From Nymphaea colorata (lineage: Eukaryota; Streptophyta; Magnoliopsida; Nymphaeales; Nymphaeaceae): a stretch of 64,000 nucleotides of DNA. Below are positions 6,160 to 43,386 of the stretch, piece after piece. The DNA lies in the NCBI RefSeq assembly GCF_008831285.2, contig NC_045149.1, positions 19,111,035 through 19,175,034 on the forward strand, in the 5' to 3' direction. The position numbers were made by a program, and so were the translations under genes. Under the pieces are notes generated by a model. The model ran no database searches and had not been told where the DNA came from. It saw only the letters and a list, made by a program, of their open reading frames with translations. The first letter of the stretch is position 1. Every line of letters starts with the position of its first letter.

Positions 6160-9100
6160 TCACTTGGGCAGGACGATGTCATCTTCCCTGTTCCAACGTC
6201 CCACTCTTCCGTGCTCTAACATCTTCTCCACCTCTTCAAATGGTAGCCCTTTGGTTTCAGGAACAAACAGGGAGATGAAGCCGAGAGAAATGAACGCAAA
6301 AACACCGAACAGTAGAAAGGTATACGCAGACCCAAGCGCTTCTGTTAGTGACAGGAAGGTCTGTGAAACAATGAGGTTGGAGATCCAGTTGGCAGTAGCA
6401 GCAATCCCTCCACAGACTCCCCTGTACCTCAATGGGTAGATCTCTGAGTTGATGATCCAGGGGATAGTGCCCATGCCCGGCGCATAGAAGATGATGTAGA
6501 GGCCAAGGCAAGTCAAGGCAAACCATCCGAAGCTGCTGGGGCATCCCCTTGTGTACCACTGCCGATGTTCTACGTTGCATGCGTTCTTTGCTCCATCATT
6601 TACTATTAAGCAGGCACCAGGGTTAAGCTGCACCAAGATCCGAAGCTGGAGTTAGCACAGTGAGAATTTAGTCTCGAATAGAACTTGACTTTGTCCAAGA
6701 GGTATGCTCAGTCTAGTTTCAGGTTGCACATCCTACAGAATCTGAATCTGTTTGGTTATTTTTGGCTATTATAACCATGCCTTTGTCCTGAATTCAGACT
6801 TGGTACCATATTTTTACAACTGAACTGTAATCTGTAGTTAGACGGAAAAAGCATTTAAACGTCAATTTCAGTGGAGCTGGGTTGGGATCAGGTTTCAAAG
6901 ACCATTGCAAGTGCTAGAAGAAGCAAAAAAACAAGCACCAATTTGAAGACAACCAAGGGCTACGTAACAAGACAAACTTGAGGAAATGAATGTGAGGAGA
7001 CTGTCATGGTGGTTCAAAAAGTGTACTGCGATAAAAACCTGACGTGTTGTATGGAAAGAAAATACAGTAAACAAAAAATAGAGCATATTTCTTCATGCTT
7101 TGAATTGAAAGAGTTTTTAATTTCTAAATCAACAACTAACCTTATTTGAACTGTCAGCACAAAACCCGCAGTCAGCTGAAGCCTTCAAACAGGAAATGCA
7201 GTTCCATTTTGCTGCAGGCATTGCTTTGTAGTTGGGACATGTAAAGTTTCCAAAGTGAGCAGTCTGTGAGACTCCAATGGCTGGTGAATGTGTTGAACTT
7301 TCATGGAAAATAATGGTTAGGGATATTAGAGTTAATATCATGCCCACTAAACTTATGATCATAAGCTTTTTCCTCCCAGTTCTATCGACGAAGAACATGC
7401 TAATTATAGTCCCAACGGCATTCAAGCCAGAGGTGATGAGAGAGAGTGCCAAAGCTGTCTTGTTCGAAGCAAACCCAGCCAACTGGACTATGGTTGGGCT
7501 ATAGTACATGACAGAATTAATTCCCACAAATTGCTGAGCCACCTGAACCCCGATTCCAGCTGTTAGACCCCGGCGGACAATTTTTGTTTTCAGGAGTTTA
7601 AAAATACTGATCTTTCCCACAGCACCTTCATCTTCACGTTCGGCTTGAACAGATTTTTGCAGAGCTGCAATCTCATTCTCAGCTTCAGATGGTGGATAAA
7701 TTTTTCTCAAGGTTGAAGCTGCTTCCTCATCTCTGTTCTGTACATGCAGAATTCCACGAAATAAGGGTGAGGGGCTGACTTGGCGAAAGAAATCATATGC
7801 TACAGTTAGATGGAGCTGTTTTAACCTTAATAAACTTTTTGAGGAAGGAAATCTGAACCAACCTTTCTGAAGAGCCACCTTGGGGATTCTGGAAGAGAGA
7901 ACATCAGCACAAACTGCACCAAGGCAGGCAGCCCTGCAACTCCAAGCATCCAACGCCATGTGCCAGGAGCCTAAATGAAGACAAAATCAAATGCTATTGA
8001 CAGACTCCAGCATCTTTCATTTACGGGTGCTCCCACAAACAGATCCACATAAATTTTCTCAAAGGACACAGTAAGATTCACCTTAACAAAGAATTTGACA
8101 AGATGGAAGCAGCTAGTACTCACCCTAGTAAAGGCCAAATTAATGAGATATGACAAAAATTGGCCTCCAGTAATAAGCAAGCCGTTTGTGGCTACCAATG
8201 CACCTCTGACCTTAGCAGGAGAAGCTTCTGATATATATAAAGGTGAAGTCATAGAAGCCATTCCAACTCCCAGACCCACAAAAATCCTTCCAAGAATGAT
8301 CACACCCGGTGACGGGGCAACAGCCATGACGATTGCACCAACAAAGAACAAAACATCAGCAATCATTATTGATTTCTTCCGGCCAATTCGATCATTCATG
8401 TAGCCGCCTAGGGCAGCACCAATTATAGCACCAGCTACAGCCATGCTAACGATGGTTTCCTGCAAAATAGTATCAAAATTTATTCCACTTCAGCCAGATT
8501 TCAAACGGATCATACCGGAGCTCACTTAGGGAAAGCTGATCTGCTCATTGCTTATAGCAGTTCTAAATTGTTTGGATCGAGCTACTCTTAGTTTCACACT
8601 TCACAAAGTGCTGATCCTTAATGCTCAGTAATGTTAGAAAGAGTTTTACCTGTAGAACAGTATGACGGTCCACAGATCGGAAATCATCTCGAATATACAA
8701 AAGAGCACCAGAGATCACACCTGCCAATGTAAGCACAATCCGAGAATTGGATCACAAAATCTACAAACTACAACATGCTGACATAAAAACAAGTTACCCT
8801 CCTGCTATGCTGCCGATACTAAAAACCAAGGTGTACGACGGTTGAGGAATTTACACCAAAATGTCGTATGTGAAAACTGACGGTCAAGAGATTGGAAGAG
8901 CTTGACATTTTTTACACACCTACGTCTAGAGCTTTATCCACCATGAGAATGTAACATGAAGGCTGAGTCAATCGGTCATGGATAGAGATCTTAAATCTTT
9001 GGTTTCTCTTAATGTATGACAAATTGTGCCTCAATTAAGCAAGGTGGAATTTATCCTATTGCTTGTGTCTGTCATCAAGTGAAAAAGAACCAAGCTCACG

Positions 9101-15481: not shown

Positions 15482-18400
15482 ATGGCTTCCACCAACCTTC
15501 CATTTGTTGCAGCATCACCTGGAAGAGACGACCTGCATGCCTTCCACAGCCATGATCAAGGGGTAAGTTCTTAATCTACAAATGTCTCAACTACCTCGGT
15601 TTGCTGATTGGCTTTCTGCGAGTTCTCTGAGAAACGTTTAGTGTTATATTAAAGATTCATGAAAAATTTCGAGGCGTTACAAAGTTGTCCTAACGGACAA
15701 AAACCAAGTTGTTAGGGGGCCGGTTGTGATCCGTCAGAGTACAGTGGGTTAGGTTTGTATTAGGCTAGCTCATGCCCATGCAGCAACATGAATCTTATAT
15801 AACAGGTTAGGTTGAAGATTGGTAGGCCAAGTTGGCGAGGTTTGAGTCAAGAAATTTGAGGTGGGTCCAGTCTCCTCCTGCTTGCTTTGCATTAGATCTC
15901 TCTCTCTCTCTCTCTCTCTTTTGAATGATTTTTCTTTGTGATCTTCTCATAATTAGCTTGTAATAACTTTTGTGTTTGCTGGCTTGTTGACGTTAATTGG
16001 TGACATGAACTTGCACAGACGGTGGTGGGGAATTCATCATCAACGGCATGTAGGATTTGTGGTGACGAGATCGGCCGGAATGAAAATGGAGAGATGTTTG
16101 TGGCTTGCCGGCAATGCGGCTTCCCGGTATGCCGTCCTTGCTATGAATATGAAAGGAGGGAAGGCAACCAGACTTGTCCCAAATGCCATGCCCGCTACAA
16201 GCGCCACAAAGGTAGTCTTTATTGACATAAAAAAAGAGAAAAACGGGTAGCTACTAGTCCCTCATGTGCCAGATTTGATGAAAATTATCCAAGCTACTGG
16301 CTTTAAAGAAATTCAAAGATAGAGATTAAGTTGAAAAAGAAAATAAAAATTCAGTTGTGTTTTCAAGAGACTGAAATACTTTTTGATGGAAGAAACAAAT
16401 GAGTTTTTTTTAATTGAGATTTTATCCTTTTCGAGGGGAATTTCAATCTTTTGAAAACACAACTAAGTTTTCATTTTTTTTCAACTCAATCTCCAGTTTA
16501 TGATCATCTTAAAATCAATGAACCAAACAATTTCCATTTCCATCATCAAATCTGACACCTTGAAGTCTGCAACTTGTTTTCCTACAAAAACATGATTCAG
16601 AAATGGTCTCTTCACAAAAGACGGCTAAAAACAAGTTAAAGAAAAATGGTTTCTTGTTTAACAGCATACTTTTGTTTGAAAACCAAATTAAGTGCATTAA
16701 AAGAATCATGAGATGAGACTCAGGGGAGCACTCCGCTGTCATATTTTATGTTGCCAAAATGTTCACAAACAGAAGCCCTTTCTACCATTGCAGGGAGCCC
16801 ACGAGTTGAAGGCGATGAAGAGGACGATGTCGATTATAATGACTTGGAAGATGAATTTCAGATTAAGAACACCAAAGAAGCACATGAACTACACCAATCT
16901 TCACCTTTTACTCAATCGGTATCAATTAATTATAGTATCTATCATAAAATATAATCTTTGACATTAATTGGCAGCAACAGTACCAATCATATTTCATTTC
17001 ATTCTTATCACAGGGAAATGGAGATCATCATGCCCCGCTGTGGCAGCCCACTCGTGGTGCCTTTTCATCCATTGCTGGGAGCAGTACGTTAAATCTTTTT
17101 GCTTTTTAATCGTAAATCATTTGGTTCACATGCCCCTTGGTGTTCTTACAAGAATCTTTCATAGCCTAAACTTATAAATAGTTAGATGGTAAAGTATTGG
17201 TCATTTCTAAGTCGAAGGCCCTTGTCTCCGAATAGCTGTATTTTTGTATTATTTTGTGCTCAGTTTCGATTACGATCTACTCTCTTTATCTTGTTTAATA
17301 CTAGAAGTTCATGCATTCAAACGTTTCCTAACACGCTTCCCATGCACATGGGTCGCTTCTCGCTTCCGCTTCTCACTCTGGCAGCCATGGCATGTGCAGT
17401 TGTAAGCAAGGACTTCGAGGGGGAGAAGGAGATGTATGGGAATGCAGAGTGGGAGGAGAGGGTGGAGAAGTGGAAAGCGCGCCAAGAGAAGAAGGGATCG
17501 TCGGTGCATCACGACGGCAAAACCGGCGATGATCCAGTGGATGCAGATGACTACTTGTATGTATATAGTTTCAACTCCTAAGCATATCGAGTCTCATCTC
17601 TCTCAAACAACTCAACCCACTCTTTGACTTGGGTCCGGCTGATTCCAAGCTTATCTCTAATAGTTTTGATTCTAACCCTAAAAAAGTTAACAACCAAGCC
17701 AATAATCTCATTAATGACCCCTCTATAAGTAAAACTTTTGAGACATCACAATATCCCATAAGTTTCAAAGCAAATGACACATTCATAGTTGAGATTTGAT
17801 TTATGATATTCAATTTGGCACCCTTTACCTTAAATTATTTTTCATTTTAACTTTTTTTTTTTTAAAAAAAAAAAAACAGGATAGCTGAAGCCCGTCAGCC
17901 TATGTGGAGAAAGGTCCCAGTTCCGTCAAGGTTGGTCAACCCGTACCGAATCGTGATCGTGCTCCGGCTCGTGATCCTCTGCTTCTTTTTCCGGTTCCGG
18001 ATCCTCAACCCGGCCAAGGATGCATACGCCCTCTGGCTTATTTCCATCATTTGTGAGATCTGGTTCGCGCTCTCATGGATCTTGGATCAGTTCCCCAAAT
18101 GGTTCCCGATCAACCGGGAAACCTACCTGGACCGGCTGACGGCTCGGTATGAGCAGGAAGGCGAACCGGACCGGCTCGCAGCGGTGGACGTCTTCGTGAG
18201 CACGGTGGACCCGAGCAAGGAGCCACCGCTGATCACAGCCAACACGGTGCTGTCCATACTGGGCGTTGACTACCCGGTTCAGAAGGTGAGCTGCTACGTC
18301 TCGGACGACGGAGCGTCCATGCTGCTGTTCGATACGCTGTCCGAGACGGCCGAGTTCGCAAGGAGGTGGGTGCCGTTCTGCAAGAAGTTCAGCATAGAGC

Positions 18401-20314
18401 CGCGGGCCCCGGAGTTTTATTTCTCCCAAAAGATCGACTATCTTAAGGATAAGGTCCAGCCCACATTCGTCAAGGAGCGGAGGGCCATGAAGGTACACAC
18501 CTCACCAACACGGAACCTTTTTTTGTTTTTTAGTTTCAAAGGTTTAATTCAGTTTAAAGTAATTTATGATTATTTAATATAATTAAAACTAAGAATGAGT
18601 TTGGTTCTGCCTGATTCACCAAATCATTCATCTTGTTACCCAAAATAAGCATGAAAAATATTATGCATAAATAAAACAAAATTAAAATCCCGGAAAAAAT
18701 ATCAAAGTTCGAGAAAGTAATTTTTTATTTTGGGCAGCGAGAATATGAAGAGTTCAAGGTGAGGATCAACGCATTGGTGGCCAAGTCCCAGAAAGCGCCG
18801 GAAGAGGGCTGGGTGATGCAGGATGGCACTCCATGGCCCGGAAACAACACCAGAGACCACCCTGGAATGATCCAAGTATTACCCCTTTTCCCTCCCTTAA
18901 ATTTGCTTGTAAATCATGATATTTTGCAAGATTTTGTTTGTTTAGGAACTACCACTTAAAACCAATATTTCAAGTGTTTTTGTTCCATGTAAAACGTGAT
19001 ATTTGTCATGTTTTTGTGAGTAAGCTTCATTAAGAAAACGACATGATGTCTGCCCCAGGTTCATCTGGGAAGCGAAGGTGCGCGTGACATAGATGGGAAT
19101 GAGCTCCCTAGACTAGTGTATGTGTCGCGAGAGAAGCGACCCGGCTACCAACATCATAAGAAGGCTGGTGCTATGAATGCACTGGTGAGTGTTCTTTGCA
19201 CTTGCTTTATCCAGAAAAGCGGGATAATCTTGGATATATTAGACCAAATTTTCGTCTTTTGCATGAAATTGGCTAGACCAAGTTTGAGAATTCTCATCGA
19301 AAACACAATCATGTTTCTGTATGAAGCCAAACGTTCGCTTTGGTTTTGCTGGTTATTTTGCTGCTTGTCTGATGAATGTTGTTTATGGGGGTGTTTGATG
19401 GTAGGTTCGAGTTTCAGCAGTGCTCACAAACTCACCCTTCATGCTCAATCTTGACTGCGATCACTACATAAACAACAGCAAGGCAGTGAGGGAAGCCATG
19501 TGCTTCTTAATGGATCCCCAACTGGGGAAGAAACTTTGCTATGTTCAGTTTCCCCAAAGATTCGATGGGATCGATCTTCACGATCGATACGCAAATCGCA
19601 ACATCGTCTTCTTTGATGTAAGTCCACGAAATAATTATTGATTCACACGCTTCTCCCTCAAATTCTCAGTGTTCTCATGTTCATGAACTGCTGCATTTCT
19701 TCGAAGAGTAGTAGTAACTAAGAATGGATCAGTGTAACTAAGAAGAAATTGTAACATGCCCTTAACATGGTGGTTTTTCTGATCTGCAGATCAACATGAG
19801 AGGTCTTGATGGAATTCAAGGACCTGTTTATGTAGGTACAGGATGTGTGTTCAATCGCCAGGCTCTATATGGCTATGAACCCCCTGTCTCAGAGAAGCCT
19901 CCCAAGATGACATGTGACTGCTGGCCTTCATGGTGCTGTTGCTGCTGTTGCTTCACCAAATCAAGAAGAAAGACCAAGGCCAAGGCCAAGTCCAAAAAAT
20001 TAGGAGGCCTCTTGGGACTGTTTGGAAGGAAGAAGAAGAAGGCCATTTCCAAGTTCTCCAGAAGAAGAGAGAAATTCATACAGCTTGAAGAGATTGAGGA
20101 AGGGCTTGAAGGGTATGAAGAACTCGAAAAATCGTCATTGATGTCGCAGAAGAACTTTGAGAAGAGATTCGGCCAGTCGCCTGTTTTCATCGCTTCGACT
20201 CTCATGGAAGATGGAGGCATTCCGGCCGGCACCAACCCCAGTTCACTCATAAAGGAAGCTATTCATGTCATCAGCTGTGGCTATGAGGAGAAAACAGAGT
20301 GGGGCAAAGAGGTC

Positions 20315-20382
<68 letters not shown>

Positions 20383-21705
20383 CATACACACACACATAAC
20401 TAAACTATATGCATGCATACTATGTGGGTATATAGAAATGGGGAATACATGCATGCTATGTAAGGAAAATATAAAAAGGTTATGTCATGTGTGCAGATTG
20501 GCTGGATATATGGATCAGTAACAGAGGATATATTGACTGGATTCAAGATGCATTGTAGGGGATGGAAGTCAGTTTATTGCATGCCTTCAAGGGCTGCATT
20601 TAAGGGTTCTGCGCCCATCAACCTGTCAGATAGGCTGCACCAAGTCCTTAGGTGGGCGCTGGGCTCGGTGGAAATCTTCCTCAGCAGGCATTGCCCACTG
20701 TGGTATGGTTATGGTGGCAACCTCAAATGGCTGGAGCGCTTGGCCTACATCAACACCATCGTCTACCCTTTCACATCCATCCCCCTACTCGCCTACTGCA
20801 CCATTCCAGCAGTATGCCTTCTCACAGGAAAATTCATCATCCCAACGGTAATTTTTCCTCTCGCCGCAAGACTTGTGCTACCAGCATGAAAAGATCAAGA
20901 ATGAATACTTTTTTGCTTCCTGAGAACGAAGATTGATAAAAAGATTGCGGTAATGATAAGTTATTATATATAATTTGTGTTTGTATGTGATGCTCGATCA
21001 TGTTTATTGGATAGATCCATGAGGGTACTCGTGATGCTCATCTTTTCTAGAGATCGTATCTCAAAAACCATATAAGCCTATTACTGTGACTAACATGTTC
21101 CAACTCTTTTTATACAACAGCTTACTAGCTTTGCTAGCTTGTGGTTCATTGGGCTTTTCCTCTCCATCATAGCCACTGGAGTGCTGGAACTTCGGTGGAG
21201 CAAAGTAAGCATCCAAGATTGGTGGCGAAATGAGCAATTCTGGGTGATTGGTGGCGTCTCTGCACACCTCTTCGCAGTCTTCCAGGGCTTACTCAAGGTG
21301 CTAGGAGGTGTGGATACAAACTTCACAGTTACAGCAAAAGCATCTGGTGACGAAGACGAGTTTGGAGAGCTTTACCTCTTCAAGTGGACTACTCTGCTGA
21401 TCCCGCCGACGACCTTGATCATCCTGAACATGGTTGGAGTTGTTGCAGGTGTTGCAGATGCCATTAACAATGGGTACAGCTCCTGGGGACCCCTGTTTGG
21501 GAAGCTCTTCTTCGCCTTCTGGGTCATAGTTCACCTGTACCCTTTCCTCAAGGGGCTCATGGGCAGGCAGAACAGGACTCCTACCATTGTTGTCCTGTGG
21601 TCTGTTCTCTTGGCATCGATCTTCTCTCTGGTTTGGGTCCGCATTGACCCCTTCCTGCCCAAGCAAGAAGGCCCCATTCTCAGACAGTGTGGTGTTGAGT
21701 GTTAG
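15482..21705 (+). CDS. CESA4: CESA4, secondary-wall cellulose synthase catalytic subunit
   Basis: Twelve exons: 15482-15562, 16019-16211, 16794-16918, 17014-17083, 17400-17556, 17880-18492, 18738-18875, 19059-19184, 19405-19617, 19790-20311, 20497-20847 and 21121-21705. They total 3174 nt, or 1057 residues, closing in frame at TAG; Arabidopsis CESA4/IRX5 has 1049. CESA4 polymerises UDP-glucose into cellulose in plasma-membrane rosettes with CESA7 and CESA8 in xylem and fibres. Visible features are the N-terminal RING-type zinc finger ([39 protein letters not shown]), two early membrane segments, catalytic DDG (about residue 350), DCD (about 518), TED (about 756) and QVLRW (about 795), six further C-terminal membrane segments and the end QCGVEC. 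The CDCWPSW block and the sequence as a whole match CESA4 rather than CESA7 or CESA8. Confidence 0.95.
15897..15919. repeat. (CT)n microsatellite in CESA4 intron 1
   Basis: About 23 bases of CT roughly 100 bases upstream of the exon 2 acceptor; part of a pyrimidine-rich region. Confidence 0.9.
20312..20396. repeat. Compound (CT)n(TA)n(CA)n microsatellite at the start of CESA4 intron 10
   Basis: The intron begins GTCTCCCTCC and runs straight into CT, TA and then CA repeats. The repeat abuts the weak donor GAG|GTCTCC. The reading frame stays open through the repeat, but the intron is 185 bases long, so retention would shift the frame. Confidence 0.9.
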
Positions 21706-22211: not shown

Positions 22212-25200
22212 CTAGGTCATGTTGTAGCTTAAATCGTTCAGTGTGATCGATTCGAGTGGTTCAGAGAGGTTGGGCTGAGCACGAGCAGAGAGATCTTGAG
22301 ACACATGCCGCATGGTGGGCCGAGCGGCAGGCCTGGTCCGAGTGCATGCAAGTGCAACGGAGACCGCGAAGACTACCTCCTCGGCGAGATGGCCGGTCGG
22401 TAGGGGCAACCGCCGGTCCAGCACATCCTTTAGCAAGAACTCCTCCGCGCTGCCGCCAGGAATTTGTGCCGCCGCCATCGATGACAAGATGGAGATGATG
22501 TTGCCGGGGTGCTTCCCCATCATCAACTCTAACGCCACAACTCCAAAGCTATAGACATCACACTTCTCCGTCGCCTTCATTGTATATGCCAATTCTGCAG
22601 AAAACCAGAACAGAGATGGTTAGCAGATCTCTTCCATCCCAGCTGCCACTCAAAGGAAAAAGGGAATTGTTTTCAGTGAGACAATTTGTCACATGTAAAC
22701 AAACACGTTTTAAAGGAAAGCATACAAACCAGGTGCCATGTAGCCGTAGGACCCAGCGGCGGCGGTCAAGCTGCTGGTGTCGGGTCCAAGAACCTTTGCG
22801 GTGCCGAAGTCGGAGACCCGGGCCTCGAGATCCTTATCCAACAAAATGTTGTTGATGGAGATGTCCCTATGCAGGATGGGAGGCGAGCAGTCGTGGTGAA
22901 GGTAGGAGAGGGCATGAGCCATTCCCTTCACGATCCGGACCCGAACCTCCCAACTCAGACCCTCCCACTCTCCTTGGGTCCCGTACAACATGCCCTCCAA
23001 GCTGCCGCAATCCAGATACTCGTACACCAGAAACATGCTCCTCTCCCTCGTGCAGAACCCATGCAACGTCACTATGTTCCGGTGCCGGGCCTCCGTCAGC
23101 GCCCGGATCTCATTCTGGAAGCTCTTCTCCTCCACCGCCTCATAACCTTCCTCTGACCCCCGCAGCCTTTTCACGGCGAGTATTTGGCCGGACGGCAGTG
23201 CGGCACGGTAGACGCTCCCGAACCCGCCCTTGCCTATGCAATACTCGTCGCTGAAGTTGTCTGTCGCTGCGGCGATCTGGTTCAAGGTCAGTTCCCATCT
23301 CACGTTCCAAATCTCGATGTCCCGGCCTTGATTTCGGTTAGTCATGGCGGAGCTTTCCTCTCGCCTATAGATTATGCAAAAGAAGGCAAACAGCAGGATG
23401 AAGACTAGTATTGCCGGGAGCAGAATGGCCAGGATAAGGATAAGGATTTTCAAGCGCGAGTTATTGTTTCCGGTGGAGGTAGGGCATTCGGTTAAGCCCT
23501 TTGCCTTCCCACATAGTCCGGGGTTTCCGATGAACGCTGAAAAGGGTGAGTCCAGAATGTGCCTGTTGTCTGGTAGTGCGCCGGATAGTTGGTTGTAGGA
23601 GAAGTCGACGCTTTGCAAACTTCTCAGGTCACTGAAGTCATCAGGGATTTTTCCGGAGAGTTGATTTCTTGAAAGGTTCAGGCTCATTAATGACACTAGC
23701 TTCCCCAATTGTGACGGTATCTTTCCGATGAGGTCATTGGAGCTTAGATCAAGCAGTGATTGCAACCAAACCAGGTTGCCAATCTCGAACGGAATCTCCC
23801 CATTGAGATGGTTGTGGTTGAGGTTCAATAACTGCAGTTTCGAACACTTGCCGACCTCTCCGGGGATTGGTCCGCTCAGATTGTTGTAAGATAGATCGAG
23901 CGTTTCCAGATTGGATAATTGGCCTATGTCAGGCGGGATGATGCCGGAGAGCCCGTTGTTGCTCAAATTTAGCTGGAAGATGGTCCTTAAATTGAACAAT
24001 TCTACTGGAATTTTACCCGAAAGGGAATTGGAGCCCAGGCTGAGGATGCGCAGCATGGATAACCGGCCAATCTCTGGCGGTATGCTTCCAGATATTTTGT
24101 TGTCCGCTAGGTTGAGAAAAGTGAGGTTGCTGCACTGCGCCCAAGCTGGGGAAATATTGCCGAAGAGGTTGTTATTGCTCACATCCATGTACACCAAATT
24201 TGGGTACCCTCCGAACGATTCAGAGATATCTCCAGTGAAATGATTCTTCTCCAGTCGAATTCTTGTCAGAAGAGAGCAGTTCTTCAAAGTTGACGGCAGC
24301 GGCCCACTGAAATTGTTCTGACTTGCGGTGAAGTAAATCAGCTTCCCACCAGCACAGATCCCGGAAGGCAAGGAGCCGGAGAAGCTATTGTTCGAGAAGC
24401 CCACGTTAACCAGGCTTCCAGATGATCCAAAGTTCGACGGTATTTCTCCGGACAAGTTATTAGTGTATATGAAAAGGAGCTCGAGATTATGAAGTTTGGA
24501 GATGGACTGGGGTAGCAAGCCCTGCAAATTGTTGGTATTCATGTCCAATTGCTGCAAAGAACTCATGTTTCCGATCTCAGGCGGGATAATTCCGTTGAGT
24601 TTGTTGTTGAAGAGGTTGAGTAGGTTGAGCTCCGTCAGCTTTCCAATTGTGGGTGGTATAGGGCCGGTGAGCTGGTTCTCTGAGAGGTCAAGTTGTACCA
24701 GATTGATTAGGTTTCCTATGGACAGTGGAATTGAGCCCGTAATCATATTTTTGAACAAGTAGAGATACGTGAGATTCTTCAGCAATCCGATCTCCATTGG
24801 GATGCTTCCCGTCAGCTGATTGCTCTGAAGTTGCAGAGAAGTTAGTTGAGTCCAGTTGGTGAGGAAGATGGGTTCTATCACCCCTGTTAGTGAATTACCA
24901 GACATGCCCAACTCCCTCATCTTTGTCCAGTTAGCGAGGCTCTGAGGGAGGGGACCGGTTAGCTTAGTCTCGGACAAATTCACCCATGCAAGATTCCCCA
25001 GTAAGCCAAGCTCCGGGGGAATGGTTGAATTCAGAACTGTTTGGTGCAGGTCGAGCTGCTCGAGAGACTTGAGCTGGCCGATCGACGCAAGGATGCTACC
25101 ATATAAGCTGTTTTCATAGAGCTCGAGGATGCGTAGGCTCTGCAACGAGGCGATCCACTCAGGAATCTGACCTGAAAAGTTGTTTCTACCCAATTGCAAG

Positions 25201-26012
25201 GCTTCTAGCTTGGCTAGTTTTGATAACTGTTGTGGTATTGGGCCTTGGAAGCCATTATTGGTGATGTTGAAGAAACGGAGCTTGGGGAGTCGTGTGGCAA
25301 TCTCATCCGGAATTTTGCCGGTCAGGTTGTTCAAAGACAAGTCAAGGAACTCCACTTTGGGGCACCGGAGCACGAAGGCCGGGAACTCACCGGTCAGGCT
25401 GTTCAGGTAGAGACCAAGGTATGTCACCGATGGCAAGTCGGAGACCTTTGATGGGTCCGGCGCGGTGAGAAAGTTGGAGCCCAAATCGAAGATCACGACA
25501 TTGGTGAGATTGGTGAGTTGGTAAGGAATAGCACCTGCAAGGGTGTTGTTGTAGAGCCTAAGGATTGTGAGGCGGTTCAGGTTTCCGACCTCCGGCGGCA
25601 CCGTGCCGTTGAACAAGTTGCTGCCCAAGTCGAGATAAACGAGCTTGGTCAGGGAGCCGATGCCCCGTGGTATGCTGCCGGAGAGGGAGTTCAGATTGAG
25701 GTTGAGGTGCGAGAGGTAGGGGAAGGCAGAGAAGTTGAGGGAGGCAAGGGTGCCCGTCAAGGAAAATCCGGCGAGGTTTATCTGGGTGACGGAGCCGGAA
25801 GTGCTGCAGACGATGCCCTTCCAATTGCAGGGGCTGGTCTTGCTGGAGGTGGTGTTACTGGTCCAGGAGGAAAGCGAATCTGCTCGTTGGAGTGAGGTTT
25901 TCCATCTCAGAAGGGCCTCTGCTTCGAGATTGGCTAAGCTGAATGTGGAGAATAACGAAAAGAAGATGAGGCTGAGGAAGAAGGGAAGGAGGGAAGGCGG
26001 TAGTGACTTCAT
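22212..26012 (-). CDS. LRR receptor-like kinase 1 (MIK2-like family), tandem copy
   Basis: Two minus-strand exons, 26012-22730 and 22594-22212, total 3666 nt, or 1221 residues, with no break. Order: signal peptide (hydrophobic [16 protein letters not shown]), N-terminal cap with CNWKGIVC, about 30 plant-type LRRs of 24 residues, a [11 protein letters not shown] cap, one membrane helix near residue 855, then a Ser/Thr kinase. The kinase has [30 protein letters not shown] and APELAY, so it looks active and of the RD class. The intron splits the APE codon in phase 1, as in the other two kinases here. It resembles receptors annotated as MDIS1-interacting receptor-like kinase 2-like or At1g35710-like. 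The ligand is unknown; defence or peptide-signal perception at the plasma membrane is inferred from the family. Confidence 0.92.
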
Positions 26013-26391: not shown

Positions 26392-26842
26392 TATCTATCA
26401 TGCATGGATTCAATCCCTTCAAACCCCTGTTCACAAATATCTACCGATTCAACCCCCTGTTTTCACAAAGAAACTTATCTATCACCCTCTTCACAAGGAG
26501 ACGTATCCATCAATCCTTGATTCAATCACTTTGCACCCCTCTTCACAAAGAGACTTATCTATCGTGGATTTCATCCTTTTGCATATCGATCATGCATGGA
26601 TTCAATCCCTTCGCACACCTGTTCACAAAGAGACGTATCTATCATGCATGGATTCAATCCCTTCGCAACCCTCTTCACAAAGAAACGTATCTATCATACA
26701 TGGATTCAATCCCTTCTTACCCTTGTTCACAAAGAGACTATCTATTATGCATGGATTCAATCCCTTGGATCCCCTCTTCACAAAGAGAAGTATCTACCAT
26801 GCATGGATTCATTTCCTTCGCATCCCTGTTCACAAAGAGATG
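26392..26842 (+). repeat. 52-bp minisatellite, about ten units
   Basis: Tandem units built on TATCTATCATGCATGGATTC, AATCCCTTCGCA, CCCTGTTCACAAAGAGACG. Units from about 26584 to 26842 are full length; earlier ones are partly truncated. Because 52 is not a multiple of three, the array is open in all three plus frames, giving three overlapping false reading frames with HGFNPF-like peptide repeats. The array ends 380 bp upstream of the LRR-RLK 1 start. A single diverged unit lies at 35490-35548. Confidence 0.92.
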
Positions 26843-29350: not shown

Positions 29351-32300
29351 CTAGGTCTTGCTGTAGCTTAATTTGTTCAGTGTGATCGATTCCAGTGGTT
29401 GAGAGAGGTAAGGCAGCGTAGAAGCAGAGAGCTCTTGAGACACATGCCGCATGGTCGGCCGAGCGTCAGGCCTTGACCGAGTGCAAGCAAGAGCTACGGA
29501 GACCACGAAGACTACCTCCTCTGCGAGCTGGCCCGTCGGTAGGGGCAACCGCGGGTCCAGCACGTCGTTTAGCAAGAACTCCTCCGCGCTGCCGCCGGGA
29601 ATTTGTGCCGCCGCCATCGACAAGATGGAGATGACGTTGCCAGGGTGCTTCCCCATCATCAACTCTAACGCCACAACTCCAAAGCTATAGACATCACACT
29701 TCTCCGTCGCCTTCATTGTATATGCCAATTCTGCAGAAAATCAGAACAGAGATGATGGTTAGCAGATCTCTTCCATCCCAGCTGCCACTCAAAGGAAAAA
29801 GGGAATTGTTTTCAGTGAGACAATTTGTCACACGTAAACAAACACGTTTTAAGGAAAAGCATACTAACCAGGTGCCATGTAGCCGTAGGACCCAGCGGCG
29901 GCGGTGAAGCTGCTGGTATTGGGTCCAAGAACCTTTGCTGTACCGAAGTCTGAGACCCGGGCCTCAAGATCCGAATCCAACAAAACGTTGTTGATGGAGA
30001 TGTCCCTATGCAGGATGGGAGGCGAGCAGTCGTGGTGAAGGTAGGAGAGCGCATGAGCCACGCCCCTCAAAATCCGGACCCGAACCTCCCAACTCAGATC
30101 CTCCCACTCGCCATGGATCCCGTACAGCAAGCCCCCCAAGCTGCCCCGATCCAAATACTCATACACCAGATACATGCTCCTCTCCTTGGTGCAGAACCCA
30201 TACAGCGTCACTATGTTCCGGTGCCGGGCCTCCGTCAGCGCCCTGATCTCGTTCCGGAAGCTCTTCTGCTCAACCGCCTGAAAACCTTCCTCCGACGGAA
30301 GCAGCCTTTTCACGGCGAGTATTTGGCCGGACGGCAGTGCGGCACGGTAGACGCTCCCGAACCCGCCCTTGCCTATGCAGTACTTGTCGCTGAAGTTTTC
30401 TGTCGTTGCGGCGATCTCGGTGAAGCTCAGTTTCCCTTTCACGTTCCAAATCTTGATCTCCCGCCCGTGATTTCGGTCGATTATGGCGGACCATTCGTCT
30501 CGCCTGTAGATTAGGCATAAGAAGGCGAGCAGCAGGATGAAGACTAGTATTGCCGGGAGCAGAATGGCTAGGATCAGGATTTTCGAGCGCGAGTTCCTTT
30601 TTCCGATCGAGATAGGACATTCGGTTAAGCCCTTTGCCTTCCCACATAGGCCGGGGTTTCCGATGAATGCTGAAAAGGGTGAGTCCAGAATGTGCCTGTT
30701 GTCCGGTAGTGGGCCGGAGAGTTGGTTGTAGGAGAAGTCGACGCTTTGCAAACTTCTCAGGTCACTGAAGTCATCAGGGATTTGGCCGGAGAGTTGATTT
30801 CTTGAAAGGTTCAGGCTCATTAACGACACTAGCTTCCCCAATTGTGACGGTATCTTTCCGATGAGGTCATTGGAGCTTAGATCAAGCAGTGATTGCAACG
30901 AAACCAGGTTGCCAATCTCGAACGGGATCTCCCCGTTCAGATGGTTGTGGTTGAGGTTCAATAACTGCAGTTTCGAACACTTGCCGACCTCTCCGGGGAT
31001 TGGTCCGCTCAGATTGTTGTAAGACAGATCGAGCGTTTCCAGATTGGATAATTGGCCTATGTCAGGCGGGATGACACCGGAGAGTCCGTTGTTGCTCAAA
31101 TTTAGCTTGAAGACGGTCCTTAAATTGAACAATTCTACCGGAATTTTACCTGAAAGGGAATTCGAGCCCAGGCTGAGGCTGCGCAGCATGGATAACCGGC
31201 CAATCTCCGGGGGTATGCTTCCAGAGATTTTGTTGTCCGCTAGGTTGAGAAAAGTGAGGTTGCTGCACTGCGCCCAAGCTGGGGAAATCTTGCCGAAGAG
31301 GTTGTTATTGCTCACATCCATGTACACCAAATTTGGGTACACTCCGAACGATTCAGAGATATCTCCAGTGAAATGATTCTTCTCCAGTCGAATTCTTGTC
31401 AGAAGAGAGCAGTTCTTCAATGTTGACGGCAGCGGCCCACTGAAATTGTTCTGACTTGCGGTGAAGTAAATCAGCTTCCCACCAGCACAGATCCCGGAAG
31501 GCAAGGAGCCGGAGAAGCTATTGTTCGAGAAGCTCACGTTAACCAGGCTTCCAGAGGATCCAAAGTTCGACGGTATTTCTCCGGACAAGTTATTAGTGTA
31601 TATGAAAAGGAGCTCGAGATTCTGAAGTTTGGAGATGGACTGGGGTAGCAAGCCCTGCAAATTGTTGGTATTCATGTCCAATTGCTGCAAAGAACTCGTG
31701 TTTCCGATCTCAGGCGGGATACTTCCGTTGAGTTTGTTGTTGAAGAGGTTGAGTAGGTTGAGCTGCGTCAGCTTTCCAATTGTGGGCGGTATGGGGCCGG
31801 TGAGCTGGTTCTCTGAGAGGTCAAGTTGTACCAGATTGGTTAGGTTTCCTATGGACAGTGGAATTGAACCCGTAATCATATTTTTGAACAAGTAGAGATA
31901 CGTGAGATTCTTCAGCAATCCGATCTCCATTGGGATGCTTCCCGTCAGCTGATTGCTCTGAAGTTGCAGAGAAGTTAGTTGAGTCCAGTTGGTGAGGAAG
32001 ATGGGTTCTATCACCCCTGTTAGTGAATTACCAGACATGCCCAAGTCCCTCATCTTTGTCCAGTTAGCGAGGGTCTGAGGGAGGGGACCGGTTAGCTTAT
32101 TATCGGACAAATTCAGCGTGGTAAGATTCCTCAATTGGCCCAGCTCCGGGGGAATGGTTGAATTCAGACCTGTTTGGTGCAGGTCGAGCCGCTCAAGAGA
32201 CTTGAGATGGCCGAACGACGCAAGGATGCTGCCATATAGGCTGTTTTCATAGAGCTCGAGGATGCGTAGGCTCTGCAACGAGGCGATCCACTCTGGAATC

Positions 32301-33145
32301 TGACCTGAAAAGTTGTTTCTACCCAATTGCAAGGCTTCTAGCTTGGCTAGTTTTGATAACTGTTGTGGTATTGGGCCTTGGAAGCCATTATTGGTGATGT
32401 TGAAGAAACGGAGCTTGGGGAGTCGTGTGGCAATCTCATCCGGAATTTTGCCGGTCAGGTTGTTCAAAGACAAGTCAAGGAACTCCACTTTGGGGCACCG
32501 GAGCACGAAGGCCGGGAACTCACCGGTCAGGCTGTTCAGGTAGAGACCAAGGTATGTCACCGATGGCAAGTCGGAGACCTTTGATGGGTCCGGCGCGGTG
32601 AGAAAGTTGGAGCCCAAATCGAAGATCACGACATTGGTGAGATTGGTGAGTTGGTAAGGAATAGCACCTGCAAGGGTGTTGTTGTAGAGCCTAAGGATTG
32701 TGAGGCGGTTCAGGTTTCCGACCTCCGGCGGCACCGTGCCGTTGAACAAGTTGCTGCCCAAGTCGAGATAGACAAGCTGTGTCAGGGAGCCGATCCCCTG
32801 TGGTATGCTGCCGGAGAGCGAGTTCAGGTTGAGGTCGAGGCGCGAGAGGTTGGGGAAGGCAGAGAAGTTGAAGGAGGCAAGGGTGCCCGTCAAGGAAAAT
32901 CCGGCGAGGTTTATCTCGGTGATGGAGTCGGAGGCGCTGCAGACGATGCCTTTCCATTTGCAGGGGTTGGTCTTGCTAGATGTGCCGTTGCTGGTCCAGG
33001 AGGAGAGCGAATCTCTTCCTTGGAGTGAGGTTTTCCATCCCAAAAGGGCCTCTGCTTCGAGATTGGCTAAGCTGAATGTGGAGAATAATGAAAAGAAGAC
33101 GAGGATGAGGAAGAAGGGGAGGAGGGAAGGCGGTGGTGACTTCAT
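29351..33145 (-). CDS. LRR receptor-like kinase 2 (MIK2-like family), tandem copy
   Basis: Two minus-strand exons, 33145-29869 and 29730-29351, total 3657 nt, or 1218 residues. Architecture matches LRR-RLK 1: signal peptide, CKWKGIVC cap, about 30 LRRs, membrane helix near residue 855 and an apparently active kinase ([36 protein letters not shown]). The start lies exactly 7133 bases from that of LRR-RLK 1 with no net indel over the 5' part. One 476-bp tract (32295-32770) is identical to LRR-RLK 1. Differences cluster in LRRs 10-11 and around the membrane/juxtamembrane region (for example [17 protein letters not shown] versus [17 protein letters not shown]). This suggests ectodomain homogenisation with divergence elsewhere. 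Function is inferred as for copy 1. Confidence 0.92.
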
Positions 33146-39022: not shown

Positions 39023-42000
39023 ATGAGTTCGACGATGGGAAGGTTGAAGCCGAAAATGAAGCCCCTCTTGCGTCTCCTCGTGCTGCTTTGCCTCGAGGTG
39101 TCGCTCAGATTAGAAGGAGCGGCAGCAGCAGAGGCGGAGGCACTGCTCAAGTGGAAAGCCACCCTCAAAACGAGAGCCCTCGACGACTCATGGTCTCCTC
39201 TCAACTCCACAAACAAGCCTTGCAATTGGTTTGGAATCTCCTGCAACAACAATGGAAGCGTCGTGGAGATGAACATCCAAAACGTGAGCCTTGGAGGTAC
39301 ACTGGACTCCTTCGACTTCTTGTCGCTCCCCAACCTTGAGGTGCTCATTCTCACCTCTGACTATCTGTATGGCCAGATTCCTGCGGGGATCGGCCACCTC
39401 CCCAAGCTCACCACCCTCGATCTCTCCTCAAACGGATTCTCCGGCCACCTGCCACCTGCTCTGGCCAACCTCACTGAGATCGCTGTTCTGCGACTAAGTA
39501 AAAATATGCTGACAGGGGAGCCTGAACCAAGGCTCTTCACCAAGTTGGTACATCTCACTGAGCTTGCACTGGACGGTAACAACCTCACTGGTGTGATTCC
39601 ATCCGAAATCGGACGTCTGTCAAGACTCGAGTTGTTAACTCTGTCGGAAAATGGATTCACTGGCTCGATTCCAGGTGAGATCGGCAACCTGACTAGCTTG
39701 TCTGTATTGTTCATGAATAACAACCAGCTCACTGGTACACTGCCTTCTACTCTGGGGTACTTGTTCAAGCTCTCTGCACTGGATATTTCTCAGAACAAAA
39801 TTGCTGGGGTAATTCCTGCTGAGATTTGTAACGTGACTAGCTTAACCTTATTAGATTTATCAAGGAACCGCCTTACAGGATCAATCCCCTCCGCAATAGG
39901 GAAGCTCGATACACTCACTTCATTGTTCTTGTATGGCAACTTCCTCACAGGCCCCATTCCATCTTCTGTGGGAAACATGGCAGAGCTCACTATGATTGGA
40001 TTATTCCAAAACCGGCTCTGGGGATCGATACCATCGGAGATAGGGAAGCTTAAGAGGCTCACTAATTTGTACCTCTTCAGCAACTTCCTCTCGGGGTCGA
40101 TTCCTTCATCCATAGGAGATCTGCATAGTCTTGAGGATCTGAACTTCTCGAGCAACAACCTCACAGGTGGGATCCCGCCAGAGGTAGGAAACTTAACTAA
40201 CCTGACCATTATGTCATTGCATCAGAATTCTCTCGTAGGTCCTATCCCGGCTAGCATTGGCAACCTGCACAAACTTCAGTTTCTGGCCCTTTCTTCCAAT
40301 CAACTTTCTGGTCCCATCCCTCATGAGATAGGAAGCATGAGGAACCTCTCTGTTCTATCACTCTTTACCAACAGTTTCTCAGGCCCAATTCCTCCCGTGA
40401 TCACCAGCCTAACCGAACTCACGGTCTTGCTCCTCCAAGGGAACAAGCTTACTGGCTCAATCCCTTCAGAGATAGGGAGGCTTGTGAACCTCAATAGACT
40501 CCTTCTTTCTTACAATCAATTTAGTGGCGTGATCCCATCAAGTCTCTGGAGCCTGACACAACTCAATGATTTGCAGATCGATGGAAACATGTTTTCTGGT
40601 CCCATTTCACCAATGATAGCAGACTTGAGAAACCTGAACATTCTGAATATGGGTGAGAATGACTTCTCGGGCCCCATTCCATCGAGCATCGGAAACCTGA
40701 CTGAGCTGCAAGTCTTAGGCCTCTATACCAACCAACTTTCAGGTCCCATACCACACCAGCTGGGGAGATTAGCCAATTTGACAATAATAAATATCGGAGG
40801 AAATTATCTGACTGGAGAAATACCTCCATCACTAGCGAACCTCACCAAGCTTACTGTTCTTGGACTGTGGAGGAATAGACTAGTTGGTCGGATTCCTGCT
40901 GAGCTTGCCAGTATGGTTAACTTACAAATGCTAAGCTTGTATTCGAACACCCTCTTCGGAATAATCCCCAAGTCGTTAGGAAACCTGACAAATCTTCAGC
41001 TCCTTGATCTCAGCCAAAACAGAATTTCAGGGCCAATTCCACCCGAGTTGGGGAATTTGGTGAACCTGAGAAATCTTACCCTCGCCATGAATGATCTCAG
41101 TGGACCGATTCCTCCCACTTTGGGAAAATTACATATGCTGGTGGACCTTACTCTTTTCGACAATCATCTCTCTGGATTTGTCCCCACACAGATAGAGGAT
41201 TTGACAAGTCTAGTCGTGCTTCAGCTAGCAAATAATAGCTTGTCCGGATCAATCCCATCACAAATTTGCAAAGGGGGGACACTTGCTTTCTTCAGTGCCT
41301 ACGGGAACCGTTTCACTGGGACCATACCAGAAGGCCTGAAAAACTGTCCAAGTTTATACTCGGCAGCATTACAAAATAACCAACTGATTGGGAACATATC
41401 AGACGCCTTTGGACTGACTCCAAATCTGCAGTATTTGTACCTAAATCGAAACAAGTTCTCTGGAGAACTCTCGCCGAATTGGAGAGAATGCTGCACCAAA
41501 CTGATTTACCTGGACCTTAGCCACAATCAAATAAGTGGCCGAATTCCATCATCCATCAGTGCTGCAGAGAATCTGCAGGACCTAAGACTATCCGTCACTT
41601 TTTTGACTGGCGAAATTCCAGCAGAGATTGGCGAGCTGAGGAATCTTTTCAAGTTGAATCTAAGTCACAATCAGTTGTCTGGTTCACTACCACAAGAATT
41701 TGGAAAGTTGGTCGAACTACAGTCACTTGATCTGTCAAACAATAATCTTAGTGGGAAGCTACCAAAACAACTTGGGGACTGCACGAACTTGCAGTTCTTG
41801 AAGCTGAGCAACAACTATTTCAATGGAAGCATCCCTCCTCAGATTGGGAATCTGGTTTTACTGCAGAGTTTGCTGGATCTCAGCTGGAACTTTCTCACAG
41901 GCCCCATACCACCCGAACTTGGAAAGCTGACATCCTTGGAAAATCTCAATCTCTCCCACAACAAACTCTTCGGACAAATTCCTTCTTCTTTGGAAGGAAT

Positions 42001-43386
42001 GGTGAGCCTAACTAGTGTCAATTTATCGTACAACAATCTTGCGGGTCCGCTGCCAAATAGTAAAGCCTTTAACGAAGCTCCATGGGATGCGTTTGTGGGG
42101 AACATTGGCTTATGTGGTAGTAAGCAGGGCTTGCGTCCTTGCAATTCCACAACCAGACACAGGGGCAGTCACCAAAAAGTGATCATACTAAGTGTAGCTT
42201 TATCTGGAGGGCTATTAATCTTTGCCATCCTCATAGTAAGCATCACTGCCTACCAAAAATTGGAGAAAGGTGATAGACAAATTTCAATCATAGAGGCATC
42301 GCAGCATGGAAATTTGTTTTCCATATGGAACTTTGACGGAAAGCTCGTCTATGAAGATATCATTGAAGCAACAGAAAATTTTGATGACAAATACTGCATT
42401 GGCAGAGGTGGATATGGCAGTGTTTATAGAGCAGAGCTGCCAACAGGACAAACTGTGGCTGTTAAGAAACTAATCCAATCAGAAGAAGATGCACTAGTTG
42501 ATCGTCGAACCTTCATCAACGAAATCAGCACTCTGACAGAAATACGCCACCGTAACATTGTCAAGCTTTATGGATTCTGTTCACACTCGCAATGCATGTT
42601 CTTGGTATATGAATACATGGACAAAGGAAGCTTGGCAGACATGCTGAAGAGTCATGAAGGGGCTGTAGAACTGCACTGGGCAAGAAGGGTGAACATCATT
42701 TCAGGCGTTGCCCGTGCTTTGGCCTACATGCATCATGGCCGCGAATCACCTATTGTTCATCGTGACATCTCTAGCAATAATGTTCTGCTTGATTCAAATT
42801 TTGAAGCTTGTCTCTCCGACTTCGGCACCGCAAGGTTGTTGCAGCCAAACTCATCCAACAGGACTATGCCTGCAGGAACTTATGGCTACATAGCACCAGG
42901 TAAAACCGTAAAAGCCAGATACAAAACTTTGAGAGCAGGAAGAAATCGTTATATTCAATTGATCTCTCTCTTTCTCTCTTTCTTTCTCTTTTAACTGGAT
43001 ATAACCATTAAACTGTAGAGCTAGCCTATATCATGCAAGTGACGGAGAAATGCGACGTATACAGCTTCGGCGTACTTGCTTTGGAAGTCGTAAAGGGAAC
43101 CCATCCGGGAGAACTCTTATCATCCTTATCGACCCAGCGAGGATCATCTTTATTGCTGAAAGACATGCTTGATCGCCGTCTTCCGGTTCCAGAAAACAGC
43201 AATGCAATAGATATTGTCTCAGTCGTGAGATGTGCACTCCTCTGTATATGCTCCGACCCGAAGATGAGACCCACAATGGAGGATGTAAGCCATTGGTTAT
43301 CTATTAGGCGTTTATCTCCCGTCCAGAAGAATTTTGACACGATTTCCTTTGGTTCTCTTACCAATCTTGTGAAGGAGGAAATTTGA
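39023..43386 (+). CDS. LRR receptor-like kinase 3 (MIK2-like family), extra-long ectodomain
   Basis: Two exons, 39023-42899 and 43019-43386, total 4245 nt, or 1414 residues, with stop TGA at 43384-43386. A hydrophobic signal peptide ([20 protein letters not shown]) precedes the CNWFGISC cap, about 38 consecutive 24-residue LRRs, a [11 protein letters not shown] cap, one membrane helix near residue 1060 and an intact RD kinase: GRGGYGSVY (about 1128), [13 protein letters not shown] (about 1246), DFGTARLL (about 1266) and APELAY. The intron splits the APE codon in phase 1, as in LRR-RLK 1 and 2. It is clearly the same family but diverged and on the opposite strand. About eight more LRRs than its neighbours suggests internal repeat expansion. 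The first ATG was used; in-frame ATGs at codons 5 and 12 are also possible. Confidence 0.92.

What the first reader, a model, noticed from the sequence alone, without database searches (positions are those of the whole stretch)
25162..25637. Perfectly identical 476-bp tract between two tandem LRR receptor kinases: likely gene conversion
By eye, 25162-25637 and 32295-32770 match at every base at a constant offset of 7133, while the flanks of the same exon differ every few to tens of bases and the juxtamembrane and N-lobe regions differ strongly. The tract encodes LRRs 2-8 (and ends), the ectodomain part normally expected to diverge. A shorter identical tract of about 178 bp lies at 24737-24913. 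This mosaic fits recent gene conversion that homogenised part of the ligand-binding region.
Basis: seen in the sequence. Interest (0 to 1): 0.6.

Follow-up and report, generated by a model that had tools for sequence, protein, structure and literature searches.

The report
Gene conversion between tandem receptor kinases
Two neighbouring copies of a plant cell-surface receptor gene share a perfectly identical 476-base stretch inside otherwise 6-7% diverged sequence, almost certainly because one copy recently overwrote part of the other (gene conversion), a well-known process in such gene clusters.

Summary
The shorter tract is 24736-24911 (176 bp), not 24737-24913. Both lie in the first exon of two intact, same-strand, MIK2-like LRR receptor kinase genes (1221 and 1218 aa) in a plant genome. 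The identity is not conservation: in the tract the two genes have 0 differences at about 116 synonymous sites, while both differ from their only other close paralog (contig C11) at dS 0.51, which is typical of the gene. Unconverted parts have dS of about 0.13-0.18. A GENECONV-style permutation test gives 0 of 10,000 for the main tract and P=0.025 for the second. Change-point analysis finds a broader mosaic: 25637-25107 (1/531 differences), 24966-23485 (2.7%) and 22693-22429 (1.5%, including part of an intron), separated by blocks at 9-15%. Recent, probably repeated, interlocus gene conversion is the best explanation. Direction cannot be decided, and an assembly or polishing artefact is unlikely but was not testable. 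The 'ligand-binding region' part of the claim is unproven. The process is well documented in plant RLK tandem arrays, including a published 2.7-kb identical tract in Arabidopsis OAK, so interest is low.

The parts
25162..25637 (-). Main converted tract in gene A: 476 bp identical to 32295-32770; encodes aa 126-283 (LRR units 3-9 by my motif count, 2-8 if the first unit is counted as cap)
32295..32770 (-). Identical partner tract in gene B
25107..25161 (-). Probable continuation of the main tract (1 difference in 55 bp; the block 25637-25107 has 1/531 differences)
24736..24911 (-). Second identical tract, 176 bp (partner 31869-32044); 31 consecutive informative sites agree, global P=0.025
23485..24966 (-). 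Low-divergence block (2.7%), contains the second tract; consistent with older or repeated conversion
22429..22693 (-). Third low-divergence block (1.5%) across most of the kinase intron and the start of exon 2; candidate conversion tract
24967..25106 (-). Unconverted island inside the LRR region (13.6% different, LRRs 11-12), including 10 differences in 26 bp at 24983-25008
22694..23484 (-). Unconverted juxtamembrane and kinase N-terminal region (10.8%)
22212..26012 (-). Gene A: MIK2-like LRR receptor kinase, 1221 aa; exon 1 26012 to about 22730, short intron, exon 2
29351..33145 (-). Gene B: tandem paralog, 1218 aa, same exon structure

Best explanation
Genes A and B are an old tandem duplicate pair (dS about 0.13-0.18 where unconverted). 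A recent non-reciprocal repair event between the two copies 7.1 kb apart, most likely double-strand-break repair by synthesis-dependent strand annealing, copied 476-531 bp of exon 1 from one gene into the other. Earlier or repeated events of the same kind partly homogenised 24966-23485 and 22693-22429. Shown: sharp mosaic divergence, zero synonymous differences in the tract, ordinary divergence of the tract from a third paralog, and no other donor found in the genome. Inferred: the repair pathway, the number of events and their ages. The direction is unknown. With 0 of 116 synonymous sites changed, the event is younger than about 15% of the age of the duplication (95% upper limit dS 0.026 against about 0.17).
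For: Exact identity. dS A-B is 0 in the tract against 0.181 upstream, 0.128 downstream, 0.173 in JM/kinase and 0.155 in exon 2, while A-C dS in the tract is 0.51, so constraint is excluded. A run of 99 informative sites occurs in 0 of 10,000 permutations; the silent-sites-only test gives P=0.0135. Expected differences given C-calibrated rates are 27.6, P(0)=3.7e-13. A 7-segment change-point model has the best BIC, 1826 against 1919 for uniform. Local A-B divergence is uncorrelated with divergence from C (r=0.07). Only three places in the assembly carry the tract: A, B and C at 80%. The copies are in direct orientation and close together, where rice conversion is most frequent (PMC2277409).
Against: No reads, alleles or related species could be examined, so the tract is known from one assembly only. 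Direction is undetermined. The second tract is only modestly significant, and the third rests on change-point statistics alone.
Confidence: 0.88

Rival explanations
1. Assembly or polishing artefact: read correction, consensus or short-read polishing wrote one paralog's sequence over the other in this stretch.
For: If the genome is the water lily N. colorata (inferred from total size only), it was built from noisy PacBio RSII reads with Canu, Arrow and Pilon (PMC7015852), a setting in which paralog mixing is possible. Near-identical blocks elsewhere on C1 (97.6-99.5%) suggest haplotype or duplication problems in the assembly.
Against: Differences of about 9% are kept right up to the tract boundary and inside the same exon. 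Both copies keep open frames, with no residual indels. A collapse would remove a copy rather than duplicate a 476-bp patch. No tool here reads raw data, so this is reasoning, not a test.
Confidence: 0.08
2. Strong local sequence conservation (selection on protein or nucleotide sequence) kept the tract identical.
For: The tract is coding and in a receptor ectodomain.
Against: Paralog C differs from both at dS 0.51 and dN 0.177 in the same tract, typical of the gene; 99 sites in the tract are A=B and different from C.
Confidence: 0.01
3. Reverse mosaic: the duplication itself is young, and the divergent blocks were imported into one copy from other paralogs.
For: One 26-bp cluster with 10 differences (24983-25008) looks too dense for ordinary substitution.
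Against: No donor for the divergent blocks was found in the genome; the best outside match to either gene is C at 79-80%. In divergent blocks, A=C and B=C sites are mixed (7 v 10; 29 v 40), not one-sided. dS in all divergent blocks is similar (0.13-0.18), as expected for one duplication age. The dense cluster has no close match elsewhere in 21000-43000 or in L003.
Confidence: 0.03

Closest known systems
OAK / At5g59670a tandem RLK pair in Arabidopsis accession Sha (PMC3136440)
   Same: Two tandem receptor-kinase paralogs share a perfectly identical tract (2.7 kb) covering ectodomain sequence, attributed to recent gene conversion.
   Different: That tract is longer and runs from before the start codon into the kinase; the genes are malectin/LRR RLKs with population data and a phenotype. 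Here the tract is a 0.5-kb internal part of the LRRs, in one genome.
Genome-wide gene conversions in rice multigene families (PMC2277409)
   Same: GENECONV-detected tracts of 4-1237 nt, mean 130 nt; receptor-like kinases are among the affected families; conversion is most frequent between close neighbours.
   Different: 476 bp is longer than the rice mean but within its range.
MIK2 (MDIS1-interacting receptor like kinase 2) and related LRR receptor kinases
   Same: Best solved-structure match of the ectodomain (8yaa, E 1.4e-166); LRRNT, LRRs, transmembrane region and RD kinase.
   Different: About 30 LRR units against 24 in MIK2; the SCOOP pocket residues D246/N268/S292/H294/H316 align to Q/Y/D/S/N, and MIK2 proper is reported as Brassicales-specific (PMC11331138).

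Membership tests
Interlocus (ectopic) gene conversion | Tract of unusually high identity between paralogs with sharp boundaries and diverged flanks | tested here: met
Interlocus (ectopic) gene conversion | Excess identity at silent sites, not explained by local constraint | tested here: met
   dS 0 against 0.51 to the third paralog; silent-site permutation P=0.0135
Interlocus (ectopic) gene conversion | Significant GENECONV-type permutation test | tested here: met
   0/10,000 for the main tract; P=0.025 for the second (own implementation, not the GENECONV program)
Interlocus (ectopic) gene conversion | Non-reciprocal transfer with identifiable donor and recipient | not testable with these tools
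   Needs orthologs or alleles; both copies are identical in the tract and the only outgroup is too distant
Interlocus (ectopic) gene conversion | Real in the DNA rather than an assembly product | not testable with these tools
   No reads or second assembly available
MIK2-like LRR receptor kinase | LRRNT + many LRRs + kinase with HRD and DFG motifs | tested here: met
   motifs in the translations
MIK2 SCOOP receptor (ortholog) | 24 LRRs and conserved SCOOP pocket residues | tested here: not met
   About 30 LRR units; pocket residues not conserved in the C-terminally anchored alignment

The most novel reading that the evidence does not exclude
Selection keeps the N-terminal LRRs of the two receptors identical through repeated conversion (shared recognition) while the juxtamembrane and kinase N-lobe are spared and diverge, giving two receptors with the same specificity and different outputs.
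Probability: 0.07. Interest if true: 0.45.

Novelty: new member of a known kind. Interest (0 to 1): 0.2.

Why it matters
It is a clear example of ongoing sequence exchange between tandem receptor genes, probably in an early-diverging angiosperm. It warns that trees or selection tests on these paralogs will be misleading unless segments are treated separately. It does not reveal a new mechanism.

Tried and rejected
Constraint as the cause was rejected with the third paralog. Import of the divergent blocks from another paralog: genome searches with both genes found no donor and site patterns are mixed. Donor search for the dense 26-bp difference cluster: no close match. Direction of transfer could not be polarised: only A, B and distant C exist in this genome, and plant relatives are not in the searchable collections. 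As a baseline, the C1 MIK2-like pair L004/L006, of similar divergence (4.9-5.0%), shows only weak evidence of a tract (P=0.03-0.12), so the C12 tract is not simply typical of every pair here. No structure prediction was run, because it would not decide between the explanations.

Full report
Observation. The claim is exact. Window 25162-25637 equals 32295-32770 at all 476 bases, at offset 7133, and is the longest exact repeat in the window. The second tract is 24736-24911 (176 bp), slightly different from the stated coordinates. Downstream of the main tract only one base (25161) differs before 25106, so the nearly identical block is 531 bp long.

What the genes are. Both lie on the minus strand and encode complete LRR receptor kinases: A, 1221 aa, and B, 1218 aa, each with one short intron in the kinase region. 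Pfam finds LRRNT_2, many LRRs and Pkinase, and the best solved relatives are MIK2 ectodomains. In the 407.8-Mb assembly only one other close paralog (C) was found, at C11:9820783-9824055, 79-80% identical in DNA. The size is consistent with the water lily Nymphaea colorata (409 Mb, 14 chromosomes; PMC7015852), but the species was not tested, and contig C15 (7.3 Mb) does not fit simply with 14 pseudo-chromosomes plus small scaffolds.

Test of the interpretation. A three-way codon alignment gives A-B dS of 0.181 upstream of the tract, 0 in the tract (115.7 synonymous sites), 0.128 in 25161-24912, 0.070 in 24911-23571, 0.173 in the juxtamembrane and kinase N-terminal part and 0.155 in exon 2. A-C dS in the tract is 0.51, so the tract is not intrinsically slow. 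Permuting informative sites gives a longest run of 99 for the tract (0 of 10,000 shuffles) and 31 for the second tract (P=0.025); with silent sites only the main tract still has P=0.0135. Rates calibrated on C predict 27.6 differences in the tract (P(0)=3.7e-13). The best change-point model has seven segments: 8.9%, 0.2% (25637-25107), 13.6%, 2.7% (24966-23485), 10.8%, 1.5% (22693-22429, across most of the intron), 15.2%. The last low block is partly non-coding, and the intron of C differs in length, which speaks against protein constraint there.

Mechanism. The pattern fits interlocus gene conversion between directly repeated neighbours, probably by synthesis-dependent strand annealing (inferred from established knowledge). 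The main event is recent: 0 of 116 synonymous sites gives an upper 95% limit of dS 0.026, under about 15% of the unconverted divergence. The other blocks suggest older or repeated events. Direction is unknown.

Function. The tract encodes aa 126-283, N-terminal LRRs. By the C-terminally anchored alignment the MIK2 SCOOP-pocket equivalents are aa 396, 418, 442, 444 and 466, outside the main tract, the first two inside the second tract; A and B share all five residues, none of which match MIK2 at those positions (the residue numbering of the solved chain was matched to the published residues by me). By counting LRRs from the N-terminus the pocket would instead fall near the main tract, so the claim that the ligand-binding region was homogenised is undecided. 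Amino-acid differences between A and B are 19/125 in the signal peptide/N-cap part, 13/83 in aa 285-367 (about LRRs 10-12), 26/75 in the juxtamembrane part and 40/301 in the kinase, against 0/158 in the tract.

Comparison with what is known. Identical tracts between tandem plant RLK genes are published: a 2.7-kb identical fragment between OAK and At5g59670a in Arabidopsis Sha was attributed to recent conversion (PMC3136440), and rice conversions range to 1237 nt with RLKs among the affected families (PMC2277409). This is therefore a new instance of a known phenomenon.

Caveat. No raw reads or second assembly were available. If this is the PacBio/Canu/Arrow/Pilon assembly, paralog mixing is conceivable, but sharp boundaries and preserved differences within the same exon make it unlikely.

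Noticed in passing
window 39023-42994 (+): A third, more distant MIK2-like LRR receptor kinase gene (exon 1 of 1323 aa) on the opposite strand; about 47% identical to A in the LRR/kinase part, with no conversion tract shared with A or B.
   Followed up: partly
L033-L036 (C1 about 24.16, 32.64, 34.85 and 34.83 Mb): Blocks of 6.3-9.7 kb carrying MIK2-like genes are 97.6-99.5% identical at places up to 10.7 Mb apart on C1, one beside a 3.6-kb run of N: recent segmental duplications or uncollapsed haplotypes misplaced in the assembly.
   Followed up: partly
window 24983-25008: Ten A/B differences in 26 bp inside an LRR, far denser than elsewhere; no source found in 21000-43000 or L003; possibly a multi-nucleotide event.
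   Followed up: partly
window 25796-26012: Signal peptide/N-cap: B is unusually close to paralog C on another contig (dS 0.14-0.17, against 0.56 for the whole gene), as close as it is to A; possible inter-chromosomal exchange or slow synonymous change.
   Followed up: partly
window 26584-26840: Tandem repeat of 5 copies of a 52-bp unit in the spacer between genes A and B.
   Followed up: no
window 17902-20521 (+) and 7129-7959 (-): Exons of a cellulose-synthase-family gene and of a sugar transporter gene.
   Followed up: no
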